Assembly (NCBI GenBank): GCA_009827235.1
Contig: SPMW01000004.1
Coordinates: 1 to 64,000, forward strand
From: Candidatus Campylobacter infans
GTDB lineage: Bacteria > Campylobacterota > Campylobacteria > Campylobacterales > Campylobacteraceae
Reading direction: 5' to 3'
Length of the DNA: 64,000 bases
Below, piece after piece: positions 20,903 through 41,187 of the stretch (its first letter is position 1; each line of letters opens with the position of its first letter). The position numbers and the translations under genes are program-made. The notes below the pieces were generated by a model that was not told where the DNA came from, ran no database searches, and saw only the letters and a program-made list of their open reading frames with translations.

Positions 20903-20925
20903 TTATAAACTTTAATCTAATTTTT

Positions 20926-21030
20926 TTACGGCAAAATCCGCGCCCTTTGTAAAGGACGCTCATAAATAAAATCATTTAAAAGCACTAAACCAAGCTGTTT
21001 TAATGCTTCTAATCTTACATCATCTTGCAT
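20926..21030 (-). pseudogene. Decayed N-terminal copy of the neighbouring acetyltransferase
   Basis: A 34-codon frame (ATG 21030 to TAA 20926) reads LKQLGLVLLNDFIYERP. It aligns with the start of the phase-variable acetyltransferase encoded about 1.1 kb upstream (LKKQGLLVFG...LNNFIFERPF), with an internal deletion of a few residues. The nucleotide runs AATGATTTTATTTATGAGCG and its counterpart are almost identical. After GAGCGTCC the frame diverges and stops. It looks like the leftover of a duplication or recombination event. Confidence 0.6.
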
Positions 21031-21051: not shown

Positions 21052-21375
21052 TTATTGCGCATTTACGGCTGTTCCGCTAACTACTACCACAAGCATAATA
21101 TTTGGCCCGCGTGCGATTGTTTCACAATCCATATGCATGCCAATTACGGCATTTGCGCCCATTTGTATAGCTCGGCGCGTCATTTCGGTGATGGCGTCAT
21201 TTCTAGCTTTTATCAATTCGCCCTCATAAGATTTCGTTCGTCCGCCAAAAAAATCCCTAAATCCAGCAAAAAAATCCTTATAAAAAACCACGCCCGAAAC
21301 CACTTCACCAAAAACCACGCCTTTATATTCTAAAATCCTTTTTCCCTCGATGTTTGGAGTTGTTGTAAGTATCAT
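21052..21375 (-). CDS. YbjQ/UPF0145 family protein
   Basis: A 107-residue protein of the YbjQ (UPF0145) family, small pentameric proteins of unknown biochemical role sometimes labelled heavy-metal-binding. Family hallmarks are the opening [35 protein letters not shown], the helix [27 protein letters not shown] and the closing [11 protein letters not shown]. Full length. It lies between the decayed acetyltransferase fragment and the phase-variable acetyltransferase, in an insertion relative to the eno-ftsB order of C. jejuni. No functional partner is evident. Confidence 0.9.
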
Positions 21376-21435: not shown

Positions 21436-22192
21436 TTAATCCAAGTTTTGTAATTTAAATTCTCCACTTTCAACAAAAATTCTTTTTAGCTCTTTTTGCA
21501 TTTTAAAAGGCGCGAGTAAATCCGCACCGCCATTTTTATACCACGAAATAAACTCAACCGGATTTTGCTCTGGCAAAAAATTTCTTTTTGCTTGATTAAA
21601 ATTTTTAAAATTTGCGCTTATGAATGCGCCCCAGTCATACTCCCACCATTTGCTTTGCTCTAAATCGGCACAAATTTCATCGCTAAATCGCATTTTTATA
21701 ATTTTTGCTGGATTACCAGCAAACACGGCATAAGGCGGCACATCTTTTGTTACCACGGCATTTCCTGCGATTATTGCGCCGTTGCCGATATTTATTTGAT
21801 GCGCGCCCGGGATAAAAACGCCATGGCCGATCCACACGCCATTATTTATAGTAGTAAGTTCTGGCAAAACCTGCGCCTCATATAAACTCTGGCAAAAATT
21901 CTCATCGCTCCCGCTTGAAGTTTGCCCTAAAAAATTATTCAGGTTTGATAGCATTACAAAATTTGTATCGTGGCGGAGCGCGCCTATTTTTACATTTTGT
22001 GCGATAGCGCAATACCGCCCAAGACTTACATTATTTAGCTCTGTGTTAGAATTTATATACGAGAACCCCCCCCCTTACATTTTGGCAATTCACGCTTGCA
22101 TAAATGCAAAAAGGACGCTCAAAAATAAAATTATTTAAATAGCATTTATCTCCAAAAACTAGCAAACCTTGTTTTTTTAATAGTTCTCTCAT
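21436..22192 (-). CDS. Phase-variable hexapeptide acetyltransferase, frame OFF (G9)
   Basis: A left-handed beta-helix O-acetyltransferase (WbbJ/CatB type) that probably modifies a surface glycan. The 5' part starts at ATG 22192 and reads to a tract of nine G (plus-strand C at 22066-22074). With nine G the frame hits TAA shortly after. With eight or eleven G it would continue as NVR-Gly-Gly-FSYINSNTELNNVSLG into the hexapeptide domain (GVWIGHGVFIPG, IGNGAIIAGNAVVTKDVPPYAVFAGNPAKII), about 250 residues in total. Internal starts could make only the C-terminal 172 residues. The acceptor is unknown; lipooligosaccharide or capsule is the usual target in Campylobacter. Confidence 0.85.
22066..22074 (-). 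repeat. Poly-G (G9) contingency tract
   Basis: Nine consecutive C on the plus strand, nine G in the sense of the acetyltransferase gene. The count places the downstream domain out of frame; 8 or 11 would restore it. Homopolymeric G tracts of about 8-11 are the standard phase-variation device in Campylobacter. Confidence 0.92.
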
Positions 22193-31985: not shown

Positions 31986-31995
31986 GGGGGGGGGG
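31986..31995 (+). repeat. Poly-G (G10) tract in promoter
   Basis: Ten consecutive G lie one base upstream of a TACAAT -10 box (31997-32002) and 38 bp upstream of the DUF2972-like ATG. Its length would set the distance between the -10 box and upstream elements. This differs from the coding-region tract at 22.07 kb. Confidence 0.9.
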
Positions 31996-31996
31996 C

Positions 31997-32002
31997 TACA
32001 AT
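31997..32002 (+). promoter_or_regulatory. -10 box of the DUF2972-like gene
   Basis: TACAAT directly after the G10 tract, giving a leader of about 25 nt with AAGGA before ATG 32034. The tract occupies the spacer where Campylobacter promoters normally hold T-rich DNA. Confidence 0.5.
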
Positions 32003-32033: not shown

Positions 32034-33605
32034 ATGACATTAGAGCAAATTTGTAGTATCGGCAAGGTTGAAATAAACGATGAAAATACCAAAATCATAA
32101 AATCTTATCAACAATACATAATCCCTTGGCTAAATAGCGATAAATTTAAAGATCACTGGGCAAACAAACCCTATCCACCGCTAATTGATCCAGATAAAAT
32201 GGAGTGGGGCGGCTCAGATGCCTTACATGCTTGGACGCTTAATTTGCCTTTGCCAAAATTTTATGATTTTGTGGTTTTTGGCTCGCACGGGGTTGGCATA
32301 AGCACTGCGATGAATAGGTTTTTATGGATGTGTAAGGCTGTGGCTGTGTGCTGCAATAAACTAGCAAAAATAAATGAAAAAGACGAAAAAGAAAACCCAT
32401 CAAATAAGGCAAATTATGTAAATATGCTAAAACATCTTGTTTTTTTTGAGGGGTTTAGAAAAGCCCAGGCCAAAAGATTAGAAGATAAAGAAATTGAGGC
32501 TATGAGTTTTAAGTATGTTTATTTACAGCTAAATGACTTTATAAACGACAGCGATGCTAAGAAATTTTATAGCCTAATCGATGCTAGCCTAGCCCTTCAC
32601 ATCGTGCGCGATCCTATCTCAAACCTAAAAAGTTTAGTAAATAACCCCCAAATGATAACTCACACAAAATACGAAGACGATGAAAATCTTAAAAAATTTG
32701 CTCTAAATTTTAATACCAACGCCAAAAAAACATTATCAAAGGTGATAATCTACCCACAAGGCGGAGCTTTTGAAAAGAAAAAAATGCAAAAAATCGGCGA
32801 AGGCGGAGAAATGAATGTGCGCCCTTGTATTGATAGCATTGATTACTGGATGCTTGATAACACGCAAACTTTTCACGATGGCGCGCTTTTTACCTTGCTA
32901 AGTGGCTCGCTAAATAAAATCAAGCTAAAACAAACAACTGATTTTATTGGAGAAAAAAGCTATGATTGTATGTGCGAGATTTGCGAGTTTTTTGGCTTAG
33001 ATAAACCAGATGAAAAATTTGCGCCTATTTTTGCTAAAAGAGCAGCAAATAGCGTAGGATTTTTACCACTTAGCATTTACGCAGATGATAAAACTGAGTT
33101 TTTTGATAAAAAATTTGGCGCAGGTGCTAAGTTTAATGCCGCTTCTATAAAAAACAGCGCAAAAATAATCCTTAGCTCAGCAAACGACCCAGCAGCCAAG
33201 CTTTCGCGCTATGATATAAGCGAGTATTTTAAAGATGTAAAAGGCTTTGATGATAGTGCGATGCTAATAAGCACTGGCGCAGATGATCTAGTAAAGCTTC
33301 TAGCTCCAAATATGATGAAAAAGCTTAAATATTATATAAAATCTTTACTAAAAGCTATTGATGAAATTTTTGAAGAGCATTATAAATATAGATTTAGCGA
33401 AGATGATGTTTTGGAGTATTTTAGGCAAAATAAACGCTCGCGCCAGGTGATGAATTATATTTTAAATCAGCATTTGTATTTTTTAAATACGCACAAACCA
33501 GATGTAGTAAAAAACTATAAATGGTATCAAAAATTTTTAGAGCTTTGTAAAGACGATGAGCCACTAGAAAATAGCGATGTAAATTTTAGTGTAACTTCAT
33601 TTTAA
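32034..33605 (+). CDS. DUF2972-type protein with sulfotransferase-like motifs
   Basis: A 523-residue cytosolic protein resembling the Campylobacter-restricted DUF2972 family, loosely annotated as sugar transferases. Diagnostic segments are PYPPLIDPDK, AWTLNLPLPKFYDFVVFGS, IVRDPISNLKSLVN and RPCIDSIDYWMLDN. FGSHGVGIST (82-91) resembles a nucleotide-binding loop. R192-D-P-x5-S200 has the Arg/Ser spacing of the sulfotransferase 3'-phosphate motif. No signal peptide or transmembrane helix. The C-terminal 100 residues are helical and charged. ATG 32034 has AAGGA upstream. Transcription may be phase-variable through the G10 tract. A surface-glycan role is inferred from the family and the switch. 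Confidence 0.7.
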   Translation: MTLEQICSIGKVEINDENTKIIKSYQQYIIPWLNSDKFKDHWANKPYPPLIDPDKMEWGGSDALHAWTLNLPLPKFYDFVVFGSHGVGISTAMNRFLWMCKAVAVCCNKLAKINEKDEKENPSNKANYVNMLKHLVFFEGFRKAQAKRLEDKEIEAMSFKYVYLQLNDFINDSDAKKFYSLIDASLALHIVRDPISNLKSLVNNPQMITHTKYEDDENLKKFALNFNTNAKKTLSKVIIYPQGGAFEKKKMQKIGEGGEMNVRPCIDSIDYWMLDNTQTFHDGALFTLLSGSLNKIKLKQTTDFIGEKSYDCMCEICEFFGLDKPDEKFAPIFAKRAANSVGFLPLSIYADDKTEFFDKKFGAGAKFNAASIKNSAKIILSSANDPAAKLSRYDISEYFKDVKGFDDSAMLISTGADDLVKLLAPNMMKKLKYYIKSLLKAIDEIFEEHYKYRFSEDDVLEYFRQNKRSRQVMNYILNQHLYFLNTHKPDVVKNYKWYQKFLELCKDDEPLENSDVNFSVTSF

Positions 33606-35160: not shown

Positions 35161-35190
35161 AATTTGCCTAATTTTCATTAGGCAAATTTT
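35159..35190. terminator. Bidirectional intrinsic terminator
   Basis: AAAATTTGCCTAAT, a TTTC loop, then the exact complement ATTAGGCAAATTTT. It separates the convergent putP and dynamin-like genes and ends in T-runs on both strands. Confidence 0.8.
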
Positions 35191-36989
35191 GTAAATTTTT
35201 CAAGTTCTTTAAATGATAAAAGATTGTCGTTGTGTCGTTTTTTGATCCCATCTAGGCTTTTTATATTTTTTATGCTTAGTTCAAAAAAGCTCTGCTTTAA
35301 AGAGCGCAAAAATTTCACACAAAAAGGCGCAGTGCCGATAAACTCGCTCTCAAACTCATAATAACTAAGCTCATTAAGCACGCGCTCGGTTATTTCGTTT
35401 TCTTTTGGATAATAAAGGCTAAAACTAAGTGGCTCGCTTTCATAATCTTTTCTTGCGCGTTCTAATTTGTTTGCTAAAAAATCCACGCTAAGGCGGATTG
35501 AGTTTTGATAATTTGTAGAAATTTTAATATTTATGCGTTCAAAAAATAGCCCAAGATGCGCGTATTTGGCATTTAATTCAGCTTTATAAGGGCTAATGAA
35601 GCTTGCATAGACATCACAGCTAAATTGCCTAATATCAGCAAAAAGCCTATCTGAGTGTAATTCATCGCTTTTTCTTAGCGTTTCATAGCGCGCTTTAAAA
35701 AGCTTGATTTCATCATCAAGCACGGCAATAATCTCATCAATATCGCCTTTAATTTTAGCGTGTAGATTATCCATTTCGCGTTTAAAATTTCTAAAAATTT
35801 TACTCATTTTATCGTCATTATAAATTAGTTTGCTTAGGGCTTCGTTGCTATCAAGCACAGGGCAAGAATAGCTGATTTTTTCGTAATTTTGCGCCCCCAA
35901 AATGCTTTTTTTTGGCTTAAAATATTCGCATTTTTGCTCTTTTATTGCGTTTTTTATCTCAGCACTAATTGTTAAGGCGTGGCGTTTAAGCTCATTAAAG
36001 GCTAGCTCAAAATCTTTTTTGTATTCGTTTTCTAGGTTGCTTAGCTTTTTTTCAAAAGAGTTTGAAAATCTCATAATGATTGATGTTAGCTCGGCTATTA
36101 TGCTACTAGCTCTTATTTCTTGGGCGTTTAATGAGTTTAGGATTAAAGCGCAATTAGAGCGAATGAAGTTTTCTTTGTTATTTTTTAAGCCTTTTAAAAA
36201 GCTAAAAACTTCGCTAAATCCGCTATTTTCTTCGCCTTTAAGCTCCATTAGAGCTGAAATCGCATAAGTTGCGCTAAAAAAATCTTTATAAGTAAGGGCG
36301 CAGTGGGCTAAAACGCGCTTTATTTCATCATCATTTAATCTATCTTTTTGATTTAATAAGCACAGCGCATTTGCTTTTAGCGTGCTTGGGATTAGCTCTA
36401 ATTCGTTAATCTCGCTAGCGCGCGCGGCGTTATTTATCAAGCTAATCCAAATTAGCGCATTTGCTTGGCGGAGGATTTGCATGGTTTCTTTGGTATCGGC
36501 ATTTGAGCGCGAATTAAGCCCTGGCGTATCGATAAAACTAACATCTTTTAAAATTTCATTATTTAAATAAATATAAAGATGCTTTACATCTTTTAGAGCT
36601 TTTCGCTGATCCACAAAGGCCCCAATCTCGCTAAGGCTTAAATACTCTTGCCTGCCATCATTGTATAAAGCCATTAAAAAATTATGCGGGGCGTATTTGA
36701 TAAAAGTCGGCTTTGCTGTAACTGGCACCACACCAGTTGGTAAAATTTCACTTCCTAAAAGAGCGTTTAAAAAGCTAGATTTACCACTGCTAAATTGCCC
36801 AACAATCGCCACAAAAGGCGGTTCATAATTTAAAAAATCAAGTGAGTTTAAGCGCTCTTTAAGCTCGCTGCTTGGGTGGAGCTTTGGCTCTAAAACGCTA
36901 GCACAAAATCGCTCAAACTCACCCTTAAATCCTTGCGAAAAACTAAAATCATAAAGGCTTTTATACTCAGCAATAAACTCTTTTAGCAT
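35178..36989 (-). CDS. Dynamin-like GTPase (DLP2-type)
   Basis: A 603-residue bacterial dynamin-family GTPase. G1 GQFSSGKS is at 64-71, G3 DTPGLNSR and G4 NQKDRL follow, then a long helical region (about 270-520) with alternating acidic and basic helices consistent with a dynamin stalk/neck. It overlaps the upstream 695-residue GTPase by 7 bp. C. jejuni has an adjacent pair (Cj0411/Cj0412, DLP1 and DLP2) shown to form a hetero-oligomer that tethers membranes, so the pair here is probably equivalent. Which of the two is DLP1 or DLP2 is assigned by order and size only. Confidence 0.88.
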   Translation of the reverse strand: MLKEFIAEYKSLYDFSFSQGFKGEFERFCASVLEPKLHPSSELKERLNSLDFLNYEPPFVAIVGQFSSGKSSFLNALLGSEILPTGVVPVTAKPTFIKYAPHNFLMALYNDGRQEYLSLSEIGAFVDQRKALKDVKHLYIYLNNEILKDVSFIDTPGLNSRSNADTKETMQILRQANALIWISLINNAARASEINELELIPSTLKANALCLLNQKDRLNDDEIKRVLAHCALTYKDFFSATYAISALMELKGEENSGFSEVFSFLKGLKNNKENFIRSNCALILNSLNAQEIRASSIIAELTSIIMRFSNSFEKKLSNLENEYKKDFELAFNELKRHALTISAEIKNAIKEQKCEYFKPKKSILGAQNYEKISYSCPVLDSNEALSKLIYNDDKMSKIFRNFKREMDNLHAKIKGDIDEIIAVLDDEIKLFKARYETLRKSDELHSDRLFADIRQFSCDVYASFISPYKAELNAKYAHLGLFFERINIKISTNYQNSIRLSVDFLANKLERARKDYESEPLSFSLYYPKENEITERVLNELSYYEFESEFIGTAPFCVKFLRSLKQSFFELSIKNIKSLDGIKKRHNDNLLSFKELEKFTKFA

Positions 36990-39070
36990 TCTTTTAACCT
37001 TGTTAATAAATTTTGTAAAAACTCTAATTCATTTTCTTTATTTTCTTTTAGTTCTTTTAGCTTGGCTTTGTCTTCTTTGGCTTGATCTAAGAGTGTTTGG
37101 AGCTGGCTTGATTGCTCGTTTAGGTTTTGTTGTATGGAATTTATGGCCAAATTGGTGCTGTTTTTAAGCTCATCTACGCAAATTTTAAGCAAATCGCTAA
37201 CTAATTTAAGCGGATTTAGCGTGCTAATAAAATCATTTAGCAAATTTTGAATATTTAAATTAAGCTTGCTTAGATCGCTTTCGTTTTTTATGGCGTTTTT
37301 TAGTGCGTTGTTAAGATCATTAAAGCTTGGGCGTGGGGCATTTTTTTGTAAGTACTCTCTTGCGTTAAAGCTAAGATCAGGCAAGTTTGTAAGATTAAAT
37401 CTAAGCTTAATATCATCAAAAATCCCGCCTAAATCAAGCTTGGCTCTGCTATCGCGCAATAAATCAAGCAACATATCATTTATGCCACTTGCACAAATTA
37501 TATTTATGCGATCAAAATTTATCTTGCTTTTTTTATCTTTTGTGTATTTGATATCGGCTATCACGCGCCCTGCTAGATTAGCGCAAATACTAGATATTTC
37601 ACTTTTTTGCTCTATTTGTTTTGCCAAATCATTAAAAATATTTTCTAGCTTTGCGTTTATTTGGTTTTTGGCGTTTAAGATGGCGTTTTGTTTGGCTAAG
37701 AGCGAGTTGATGTTGTCATCTTTATTTTGGCTTATAAGCGCGCTTAGGCTTTGGCTCGCTTCGTTTATCAAGCTTAAAATTATAAGCCCTAGCTCTTTTT
37801 TGTAATTTTGTAAAATTATGCTAGCTTTTTTAGAATTTTGGCCAAAAAAGCTTTCATACAAATGCGCTTTTAGCTCGTTTATGCCTATGTTTTTTGGCGC
37901 GCTTAGCTTAAAATAATGAACCTTATTAGCCAAGCTCTCATCAAAGCCACATTCTTTTAATTCTGTTTTTATGCTTTGTTTTGTGTATTCTAGCGCGCTT
38001 TTTAGCTCTGTTTCATCTAATTCATCAATATGGGTTAAAACCACGCCAAATTCGCTACTCTTAGCATTTTGTAGCACTTCGCAAATAAATAGCATATCTT
38101 TTTTGCTAGATGCTTGGGCGGCGTTCATTAAATGTAAAATATAATCGCATTTATTGATATAGCTTTTAGTTAGCTCTTCGCGCCAAATAACAGCATCATC
38201 AAGCCCTGGGGTATCTACAATGCTTAATCCATCTTTTAAAATTTCTAAATCTAAAAAAATCTCGCTTTGTTTTATGTATCTTGCAAGGGCGGAATTTGCG
38301 CCTGTGTAGTTTTTTAGCTCATCTAAACTCACGCTAAGCTCGCTTAAATCTTTTATCTCTAAGCCCATTAGCTCTTGTAGGTTCTTATCCAAAAACTCGA
38401 TTTTAGCGTGCTTTTGCTTGTCATAGCTTAGCACGCTTATGCTAGCAGTTTCTGGGATATTTGATACGCCAAGGATATTTTGCCCCATTAAGGCATTTAG
38501 CGTGCTTGATTTGCCAGCATTTATTACGCCAGTAATTGCTACATAAAAGCGTGAATTATTAGCATTTTGCTCGGCGTTTTCTAGCCTTTGATAAAGGCTT
38601 TTTTGCTTTGAAATTTTAAAATACTCACAAAGGCTTTTATAAATTTCATTTAAACTGGCTAAATTTTGTAAAAAGCTAGTATTTAGCTGGGCAGAAGTTG
38701 CTAAATCTTTAAGTTTTAATTCGTTTAAAAAGGTGCTGATTTTTTCAAAATGGCTAAACTCACAAAGATTTTCTTTGCTTAAAATTTTAAGTGCTTCTAA
38801 AAGCTCGGCACGCTTGATTTTTAGGGCATTTACATTAAAAATCGCGCTTGATTGTAAAAGTTCTAAATTATAAAGATTAAGCTCTAAATCAAGATTTTTA
38901 AAAAGCTCTTTAAAGCTATCTAGGCTAGCAAAACGCTCGTAATTTTGCGGGTTGGTAGCTAGTATGATAGCAGCAGTTTGTGCGCTAAGATTTTTGATCT
39001 CTTTATAATCGATGTAGAGCTTATTAAAACCCCAAATTTGTTGTAAAAGCTCATCAATTCGTGCTTTCAT
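36983..39070 (-). CDS. Dynamin-like GTPase (DLP1-type)
   Basis: A 695-residue dynamin-family GTPase with a helical N-terminal extension (1-170) before the G domain: G1 GVINAGKS at 181-188, G3 DTPGLDDAV and a G4-like THIDEL. The remainder is long helices. A coiled coil ends the protein (about 640-690, QLQTLLDQAKEDKAKLKELKE). It is the first gene of a two-gene unit, its stop overlapping the start of the second GTPase. The role in membrane remodelling or tethering is inferred from the C. jejuni pair. No transmembrane segment is obvious. Confidence 0.88.
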   Translation of the reverse strand: MKARIDELLQQIWGFNKLYIDYKEIKNLSAQTAAIILATNPQNYERFASLDSFKELFKNLDLELNLYNLELLQSSAIFNVNALKIKRAELLEALKILSKENLCEFSHFEKISTFLNELKLKDLATSAQLNTSFLQNLASLNEIYKSLCEYFKISKQKSLYQRLENAEQNANNSRFYVAITGVINAGKSSTLNALMGQNILGVSNIPETASISVLSYDKQKHAKIEFLDKNLQELMGLEIKDLSELSVSLDELKNYTGANSALARYIKQSEIFLDLEILKDGLSIVDTPGLDDAVIWREELTKSYINKCDYILHLMNAAQASSKKDMLFICEVLQNAKSSEFGVVLTHIDELDETELKSALEYTKQSIKTELKECGFDESLANKVHYFKLSAPKNIGINELKAHLYESFFGQNSKKASIILQNYKKELGLIILSLINEASQSLSALISQNKDDNINSLLAKQNAILNAKNQINAKLENIFNDLAKQIEQKSEISSICANLAGRVIADIKYTKDKKSKINFDRINIICASGINDMLLDLLRDSRAKLDLGGIFDDIKLRFNLTNLPDLSFNAREYLQKNAPRPSFNDLNNALKNAIKNESDLSKLNLNIQNLLNDFISTLNPLKLVSDLLKICVDELKNSTNLAINSIQQNLNEQSSQLQTLLDQAKEDKAKLKELKENKENELEFLQNLLTRLKEC

Positions 39071-40053: not shown

Positions 40054-41187
40054 TTAAAATTTAGCCTTAAACTGAGCAAGCACCGATTTTAGCGTGCTGA
40101 TTATAAAATTTGCGTCTTCTTGGCTCATTAGTTGATGGCAAGGCAGGCTAAGTTCGCTTTCATAGAAATTTTTTGCGCTTGGGATATTGATTGTGCCGTA
40201 TTTTTGGCGGTAAAAACTAAACTCATAGCTTGGTTTGTAATGAACTTGCGCGCCTATGCCAGCTTTTTGTAATTTTGTAAAAATTTCTGCCTTATGCGCC
40301 CTTAAATGCGGGGCTAATTTAATAGGGTAAAGATGCCTTGAAGATGTAAGATTATTAGGAATTTTAATAAGATCTAAAAGCTCATTAAATGGCTCTTTAC
40401 AAAGCTCGCTATCATAATACAAGGCTATTTGTTCGCGTTTTGCTATGAAGCTATCAAGCTTTTTGAGCTGACTTAGTCCTAGCGCGCAAGCCACATCGCT
40501 TAGGCGGTAATTATATCCTAGCACGCTTATATCGCTATCCCAAAGCTCTTTTTTGCTAATGCCGTGAGAGCGAATTAACCTTGCTTTTTTAGCGATTTGC
40601 TCATCATCTGTAAGCAAGGCTCCGCCTTCAAGCGTGGTAATAGGCTTAATCGCATGAAAACTAAACACGCTTGCATTTGCTTTTTTACCGACTTTTACGC
40701 CTTTATAAGTGCTACCTAGGGCGTGGCTAGCATCATCAAGCACAAGCAAATTGTGTTTTTTTGCAAGACTTAAAATTTCGTCCATATCCACGCTTAGCCC
40801 GCCAAAATCCACAGGGACAATGATTTTTGTGCGCGGGTTAATTAGGGATTGAATGCTTGAAATATCGATATTGCCGCTGTATTCATCAACGCCTGCCCAG
40901 CGCACATCTGCTCCGCACATAATAGCAGCATTTGCTGTGGCCGCAAAGGTGATTGGAGAGGTGATTATTTCATCATTTTGGCTAAGTCCTAGGGCTAGAT
41001 AGCCTGCGTGGAGAGCTGAGGTGGCTGAGTTCATTACCACGGCAAATTTTACGCCGATGTATTCACAAAGTGCGCGCTCAAACTCATCTACTCTTTTTCC
41101 ACAAGTTATAATATCATCTTCTAAGGCGGCGCAAACCGCGCTTATATCATCGTTTTGTATGTTTTGGCGAGAATAGGGGATAAACAT
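40054..41187 (-). CDS. pseC: PseC-type UDP-sugar aminotransferase
   Basis: PLP aminotransferase predicted to form UDP-4-amino-4,6-dideoxy-N-acetyl-beta-L-altrosamine in pseudaminic acid synthesis, used to glycosylate flagellin. The 377-residue DegT/DnrJ/EryC1-family sequence opens IPYSRQNIQNDDISAV and has NSATSALHAGYLALG, SPITFAATANAAIMCGA, LDDASHALGS and the PLP-binding Lys in SFHAIKPITTLEGGAL. Overall it resembles PseC more than PglE. Other pse genes are not in the window. ATG 41187 has an AAGGATT site. Confidence 0.87.
   Translation of the reverse strand: MFIPYSRQNIQNDDISAVCAALEDDIITCGKRVDEFERALCEYIGVKFAVVMNSATSALHAGYLALGLSQNDEIITSPITFAATANAAIMCGADVRWAGVDEYSGNIDISSIQSLINPRTKIIVPVDFGGLSVDMDEILSLAKKHNLLVLDDASHALGSTYKGVKVGKKANASVFSFHAIKPITTLEGGALLTDDEQIAKKARLIRSHGISKKELWDSDISVLGYNYRLSDVACALGLSQLKKLDSFIAKREQIALYYDSELCKEPFNELLDLIKIPNNLTSSRHLYPIKLAPHLRAHKAEIFTKLQKAGIGAQVHYKPSYEFSFYRQKYGTINIPSAKNFYESELSLPCHQLMSQEDANFIISTLKSVLAQFKAKF

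What the first reader, a model, noticed from the sequence alone, without database searches (positions are those of the whole stretch)
22066..22192. Phase-variable acetyltransferase captured in the OFF state
A nine-G tract splits a hexapeptide O-acetyltransferase into an upstream part with a start codon and an out-of-frame downstream domain. Frame counting shows 8 or 11 G restores one continuous protein of about 250 residues. Poly-G slippage is the known switch mechanism for Campylobacter surface genes, so this is a likely ON/OFF decorator of a surface glycan.
Basis: partly seen in the sequence, partly recalled or inferred. Interest (0 to 1): 0.75.

Follow-up and report, generated by a model that had tools for sequence, protein, structure and literature searches.

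The report
On/off-switchable bacterial acetyltransferase gene
A run of nine G's breaks this Campylobacter-type acetyltransferase gene out of frame, and matching genes in related bacteria show the same kind of run in both intact and broken states, so it is very probably a real but ordinary on/off switch.

Summary
A 9-G tract (minus strand, 22066-22074) separates a 39-residue head with an ATG from a 209-codon hexapeptide acyltransferase body in another frame. It is one of two G/C runs of 7 or more in the window, far beyond chance. Intact 252-residue relatives, 99% and 90% identical over the body, exist in public data. Two unnamed Campylobacter-family genomes carry paralogues with poly-G over the same glycine motif. 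In 3 of 3 orthologous pairs one copy is continuous and the other split, with bodies open and dN/dS below 1. Translational phase variation is therefore well supported. The tract overlies a near-invariant glycine (49 of 53 sequences). The catalytic-type histidine lies after the tract and before the first restart codon, so the split form should be inactive. The substrate is unproven: the gene is an orphan between eno and ybjQ, outside any lipooligosaccharide or capsule locus seen here; one paralogue lies in a sugar-nucleotide cluster. New member of a known kind. A second tract sits at a promoter-like site upstream of a DUF2972 gene.

The parts
22066..22074 (-). nine-G tract inside the acetyltransferase gene, over the codons of the conserved Gly motif
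   Evidence: near-invariant Gly in 49 of 53 relatives
22075..22192 (-). head of the gene: ATG and the first 39 codons before the tract
   Evidence: tblastn of P0002 residues 1-46 onto this stretch
21436..22065 (-). body of the gene (209 codons and stop): hexapeptide, CatB-related acyltransferase domain, in a different frame from the head
   Evidence: 99% identical to P0002
22232..23515 (-). eno, same strand, ending 39 bp upstream of the acetyltransferase ATG; possible read-through transcription (inference)
   Evidence: ORF; enolase PF00113 7e-114
21052..21375 (-). YbjQ-family gene directly downstream of the acetyltransferase
   Evidence: PF01906 8e-36
20915..21030 (-). fossil of a sibling acetyltransferase: head and a short tail of a P0016-like gene, the middle missing and frames broken
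   Evidence: tblastn of P0016 residues 1-34 at E 2e-9, and a weak 11-residue tail match at E 0.07
31986..31995 (+). ten-G tract one base before a -10-like TACAAT, upstream of the DUF2972 gene; candidate promoter-type phase-variation tract
   Evidence: similar layout in a relative, L121
32034..33605 (+). DUF2972 gene behind the ten-G tract
   Evidence: PF11186 2.8e-22

Best explanation
A phase-variable acyltransferase gene. Slipped-strand mispairing in the poly-G tract changes its length during replication (known for Campylobacter; not measured here). In some cells head and body are in one frame and a 252-residue acyltransferase of the CatB-related hexapeptide kind is made. In others, as in this assembly, translation stops a few codons after the tract, before the catalytic-type histidine. 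The gene may be transcribed with eno just upstream (inference). The most likely job is O-acetylation of a cell-surface sugar, so cells would differ in surface chemistry (inference). Shown: tract, split frames, intact relatives, opposite states in orthologues, selection on the body between orthologues, family. Inferred: slippage in living cells, transcription, substrate, benefit.
For: Tract and frames. Intact natural relatives: P0002 (252 aa, 99% over the body, cluster of 322 member sequences) and P0003 (252 aa, 90%). Poly-G at the same Gly motif in 5 of 30 family loci. Orthologous pairs between G008 and G009: A split/continuous, B continuous/split, C continuous with an A-interrupted run/split. 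Body dN/dS 0.16, 0.30 and 0.07 by NG86; 0.18, 0.46 and 0.13 by YN00; eno between the same genomes 0.07 by NG86. His75 in 52 of 53 relatives, aligned in the profile with the His of CatB8; the first ATG/GTG/TTG in the body frame comes after it. Model of P0002: pLDDT 91.6, the Gly motif between strands 35-41 and 45-47. Tract lengths 9 and 10 are the commonest in the genus (PMC6321876, passages). Paralogue D lies beside dTDP-sugar epimerase, DegT aminotransferase and epimerase/dehydratase genes.
Against: No reads and no second isolate of the window's species, so variation of this very tract was not seen. P0003 and P0004 rest on 6 and 1 member sequences, and P0003 lacks glycines at the motif. A recent split would leave little trace in dN/dS. 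In three split relatives the body frame has a start codon upstream of the tract (TTG in L052 and L075, ATG in L077), so their split state may still yield a protein with another head; the window gene has a stop there. No glycan locus was seen around the window gene. The best PDB matches are xenobiotic acetyltransferases. The body falls just under the Pfam Hexapep cut-off (25 against 27 bits).
Confidence: 0.82

Rival explanations
1. A dying pseudogene: the tract shift is permanent and the gene is on its way out, like the fossil sibling next door.
For: A fossil of a sibling gene lies about 400 bp downstream; G014 and G075 have a DivIC-like gene right after eno and no acetyltransferase there, so the gene is dispensable.
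Against: 209 codons open after the tract; a 99% identical intact relative in a cluster of 322 sequences; pairs of relatives with one split copy keep dN/dS well under 1.
Confidence: 0.08
2. A homopolymer error of sequencing or assembly: the real length differs and the gene is simply intact.
For: Homopolymers are error-prone, only one assembly was read here, and the nearest relative in the database is intact.
Against: Relatives carry the same tract in several copies and in both states. An error would alter only the recorded state, not the tract.
Confidence: 0.05
3. The tract is a slippery site for RNA polymerase or ribosome, so some full-length protein is made in every cell whatever the DNA length (not exclusive of phase variation).
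For: Long G runs can be slippery in transcription (general knowledge).
Confidence: 0.05
4. Switching is real, but the enzyme acts on a small molecule (antibiotic-like or metabolic) rather than on a surface glycan.
For: Best PDB matches are CatB, VatA and other xenobiotic acetyltransferases; the best NCBIfam hit is a phosphonate-metabolism hexapeptide family, under its cut-off.
Against: Resistance models score far below cut-off (CatB 71 of 350, Vat 89.6 of 300 bits); a paralogue sits in a sugar-nucleotide cluster; drug modification is not a usual phase-variable trait (general knowledge).
Confidence: 0.2

Closest known systems
Poly-G phase-variable (contingency) genes of Campylobacter
   Same: Nine-G tract inside a reading frame, head and body in different frames, intact and split orthologues; lengths 9 and 10 are the commonest in the genus (PMC6321876 passages)
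   Different: This gene stands alone in a housekeeping region; the tract overlies a near-invariant Gly of the enzyme
CatB-related / XAT-type hexapeptide acyltransferases (CatB8 8j40, VatA 4hur, PaXAT 1xat)
   Same: Profile match over about 140-160 positions, conserved histidine, Foldseek matches to the model
   Different: The profile match starts after the Gly motif; far below the resistance-family cut-offs; Foldseek TM scores of these three only 0.43-0.48 by query length
Phase-variable O-acetyltransferases of surface sugars in other genera (Haemophilus oafA; Neisseria lot3, pglI; recalled, only PMC6479036 seen, as a search listing)
   Same: Repeat-driven on/off acetylation
   Different: Recalled as other repeat types or other enzyme families; homology not tested here
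DUF2972 genes of Campylobacter (C-terminal domain of a putative capsule MeOPN-transferase, PMC5808241 passage)
   Same: Also carries G tracts here and lies two genes before acetyltransferase copy C in a relative
   Different: A different protein family; in the window its tract is promoter-like, not coding

Membership tests
Repeat-driven phase-variable gene (translational type) | Mononucleotide tract long enough to be hypermutable, inside a coding region | tested here: met
   9 G at 22066-22074; 0 of 100 shuffles reach the window's count of such runs; hypermutability itself not measured
Repeat-driven phase-variable gene (translational type) | Tract change switches between full-length and truncated protein | tested here: met
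   Split in the window; intact natural relatives P0002 and P0004; the window halves themselves were not joined
Repeat-driven phase-variable gene (translational type) | Tract length and state vary among relatives | tested here: met
   Orthologous pairs A, B and C differ in 3 of 3
Repeat-driven phase-variable gene (translational type) | Reversible variation within one clone or population | not testable with these tools
   No reads or colonies
CatB-related hexapeptide acyltransferase | Hexapeptide-type fold and sequence profile | tested here: met
   CatB8 E 1e-43 with profile A1; P0002 model pLDDT 91.6; but Pfam Hexapep just under cut-off and modest TM scores
CatB-related hexapeptide acyltransferase | Conserved catalytic histidine | tested here: met
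   H75 in 52 of 53, aligned with the H of CatB8; its catalytic role in the known enzymes is recalled
Chloramphenicol (CatB) or streptogramin (Vat) resistance enzyme | Curated NCBIfam score cut-off | tested here: not met
   71 of 350 and 89.6 of 300 bits, body only
Lipooligosaccharide or capsule locus acetyltransferase | Lies within a glycan biosynthesis locus | tested here: not met
   34 window ORFs besides the body scanned with Pfam, housekeeping genes around the gene; met only for paralogue D in a relative
Lipooligosaccharide or capsule locus acetyltransferase | Acetylates a surface sugar | not testable with these tools
   -

The most novel reading that the evidence does not exclude
The glycine turns of this acyltransferase fold act as a nursery of switches. 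Codons of conserved Gly pairs have become poly-G tracts more than once (the GGG-F/Y-S-Y turn in the window gene and copies A, B and C; the W-G-G motif in copy D and in G001), while sibling copies recombine or die. Such lineages would then vary both whether and what they acetylate: on/off by slippage, acceptor by tail swapping, as in P0004.
Probability: 0.35. Interest if true: 0.5.

Novelty: new member of a known kind. Interest (0 to 1): 0.36.

Why it matters
It adds an acyltransferase family, with several copies in some genomes, to the list of switchable Campylobacter-family genes. It also gives a concrete case of a hypermutable tract built on codons that a protein fold needs anyway, which bears on how such switches arise. 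Since copies in two related species sit in opposite states, the family suits counting states in existing read sets.

Tried and rejected
Pfam and NCBIfam on the 39-residue head gave no family. Own-genome search: none held. The genome-contig scan with the body returned 49 loci, the best 45% identical in its first segment by E-value order; the window's species did not appear. Papers on such a gene in Campylobacter: the searches 'phase variation / Campylobacter / acetyltransferase / poly-G' (2 papers), 'phase-variable / Campylobacter / O-acetyltransferase / homopolymeric' (2 papers), 'hexapeptide / phase variation / homopolymeric' (1 paper) and 'CatB-related O-acetyltransferase' (4 papers) showed none. 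Of these I looked at passages of the two (metabolic and PseH enzymes only) and at listings for the rest; the library lacks most subscription journals. A tree of the bodies (24 rows, long branches, 7 of 21 inner forks open) puts tract-bearing copies in separate clades but cannot tell one origin from several; one of its rows (P0051) was cut badly and is a long branch. In one search minus-strand loci were read on the wrong strand for the motif check; one search repeats it correctly, and only the eno flanks are used. Copy D was first taken to have its tract at the same motif; it lies at the upstream W-G-G motif instead.

Full report
Check of the observation. The window holds nine C on the plus strand at 22066-22074, nine G on the coding strand. 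Only two G or C runs of seven or more exist in 64 kb: this one and ten G at 31986-31995. Shuffles give 0.09 matches of eight G/C against 5 overlapping ones seen, with 0 of 100 shuffles reaching 5. The ATG at 22192 opens 39 codons, then the frame crosses the tract and stops after residue 48. The body frame is open for 209 codons after the tract to its stop at 21436. The finding's coordinates cover head and tract only.

What it is. The body matches hexapeptide acyltransferases: the best NCBIfam hit is TIGR03308 at 114 bits, under its cut-off of 202. The best PDB matches are CatB and Vat enzymes, by single sequence and by a profile of 53 sequences that I chose among the 120 listed relatives (CatB8, E 1e-43). 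The natural relative P0002 is modelled at mean pLDDT 91.6; Foldseek puts VatA, CatB8, a maltose transacetylase and VatD first, at modest TM scores. Resistance models score far below their cut-offs, so I do not file it as a resistance gene.

What the split does. His75 (P0002 numbering) is kept in 52 of 53 relatives and aligns with a His of CatB8. In the window it is residue 32 of the body, and the first ATG/GTG/TTG in that frame is at residue 38. A product restarted there would lack it. The split state should therefore be inactive (inference from sequence).

Evidence for switching. Of 2013 database relatives found (120 listed), P0002 (99% over the body, 252 aa, cluster of 322 member sequences), P0003 (90%, 252 aa, 6 members) and P0004 (72%, 247 aa, 1 member) are intact. 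Among 153 genomes of the family of G001 (the genome of L003, a record titled Campylobacteraceae bacterium), 24 have a relative at E 1e-15 or better, in 31 rows, 30 of them with loci. Of those 30 loci, 8 have a coding-strand run of seven or more G within 100 bases before the match start, from 4 genomes; L053 has one after its match. Five of the 8 (G008, G009) lie directly at the Gly-Gly-Gly-Phe/Tyr motif, as in the window. The 31st row, read as L119, has no such run there. Of the 8, three are continuous (L051, L078, L057) and five split (L050, L052, L075, L077, L079). Against a clean reading: L052 and L075 have a TTG, and L077 an ATG, in the body frame upstream of the tract. The three orthologous pairs of G008 and G009, recognised by matching neighbours, are each in opposite states. 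In pair C the continuous copy has its run broken by an A, which would lock it on (inference). Body dN/dS is 0.16, 0.30 and 0.07 by NG86 and 0.18, 0.46 and 0.13 by YN00, against 0.07 (NG86) for eno. So split copies show no sign of free decay, though a recent split would not yet show.

Where the tract sits. The middle glycine of the motif is present in 49 of 53 aligned relatives and lies between two strands in the model. GGG is 73 of 494 glycine codons in 15 window genes, so three in a row is not the local habit. Copy D and the G001 copy carry their runs at an upstream W-G-G motif instead, and G098 (L057) at another place still. The tree cannot settle the number of origins.

Neighbourhood. The gene starts 39 bp after eno on the same strand and is followed by a ybjQ gene, a fossil of a sibling acetyltransferase (20915-21030), a DivIC-like gene (Pfam score under its cut-off) and an AMIN-domain gene. 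In G014 and G075 a DivIC-like frame follows eno directly; in G008 and G009 short repeats and then that frame follow. So the acetyltransferase, ybjQ and the fossil look like an insertion in the window's lineage (inference). P0004 looks like a head of the window type (176 of 183 identical to P0003, 97 of 183 to P0016) with a tail of the P0016 type (59 of 64 identical, against 18 of 62 to P0003), as recombination between two such siblings would give. It rests on one member sequence and could be an assembly chimera.

Function. The window gene is an orphan: 34 window ORFs besides the body were scanned with Pfam (others were not), and the only sugar-type gene among them is a DegT-family aminotransferase at 40054-41187. 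In relatives, pair A/B lies beside DAHP synthase and a gyrA-type gene. Copy C lies two genes after a DUF2972 gene with a G tract of its own, a helix-turn-helix gene between. Copy D lies in a sugar-nucleotide cluster. DUF2972 is also the C-terminal domain of a putative capsule MeOPN-transferase of C. jejuni NCTC12662 (PMC5808241, one passage). The surface-glycan role is thus plausible, not shown.

Compared with the known. Poly-G tracts dominate Campylobacter phase variation, with lengths 9 and 10 commonest (PMC6321876, passages; PMC8355987, passages). Neither main text contains the word acetyltransferase or DUF2972; supplements were not read. I file this as a new member of a known kind.

Second tract. 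Ten G at 31986-31995 end one base before TACAAT and 38 bp before the ATG of a DUF2972 gene. In G009 nine G abut TATAAT before a DUF2972 gene with similar spacing (L121). Other DUF2972 copies in G008 and G009 carry tracts inside the gene (L120, L123/L128, L124, L126), and some none (L122, L125, L127, L129). At E 1e-20 this family was found in 2 of 153 genomes.

Noticed in passing
window 31986-32002 and 32034-33605: Ten-G tract one base before a -10-like TACAAT upstream of a DUF2972 gene; a similar arrangement in L121 (9 G, TATAAT). A likely transcriptional phase-variation tract.
   Followed up: partly
window 20915-21030: Fossil of a sibling acetyltransferase: head and a short tail of a P0016-like gene with the middle missing.
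   Followed up: yes
P0004 (database protein): Chimera-like protein: head as in P0003, tail as in P0016, junction at a shared motif near residue 183; one member sequence only.
   Followed up: partly
P0003 (database protein): 90% identical intact relative in which the Gly-Gly-Gly at the tract is replaced by Cys-Leu-Leu; a lost tract or an assembly error, DNA not seen.
   Followed up: no
L118 5023-5030 and 3865-5136: Eight-G tract in frame inside an FAD/NAD-binding amine-oxidase-like gene beside acetyltransferase copy D in a sugar-nucleotide cluster.
   Followed up: no
L117 2500-2990 and L116 12801-13000: Short repeats (translating as repeated ILEF-like words) between eno and the DivIC-like gene in G008 and G009.
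   Followed up: no
window 35178-39070: Two adjacent dynamin-family GTPase genes (PF00350 in both).
   Followed up: no
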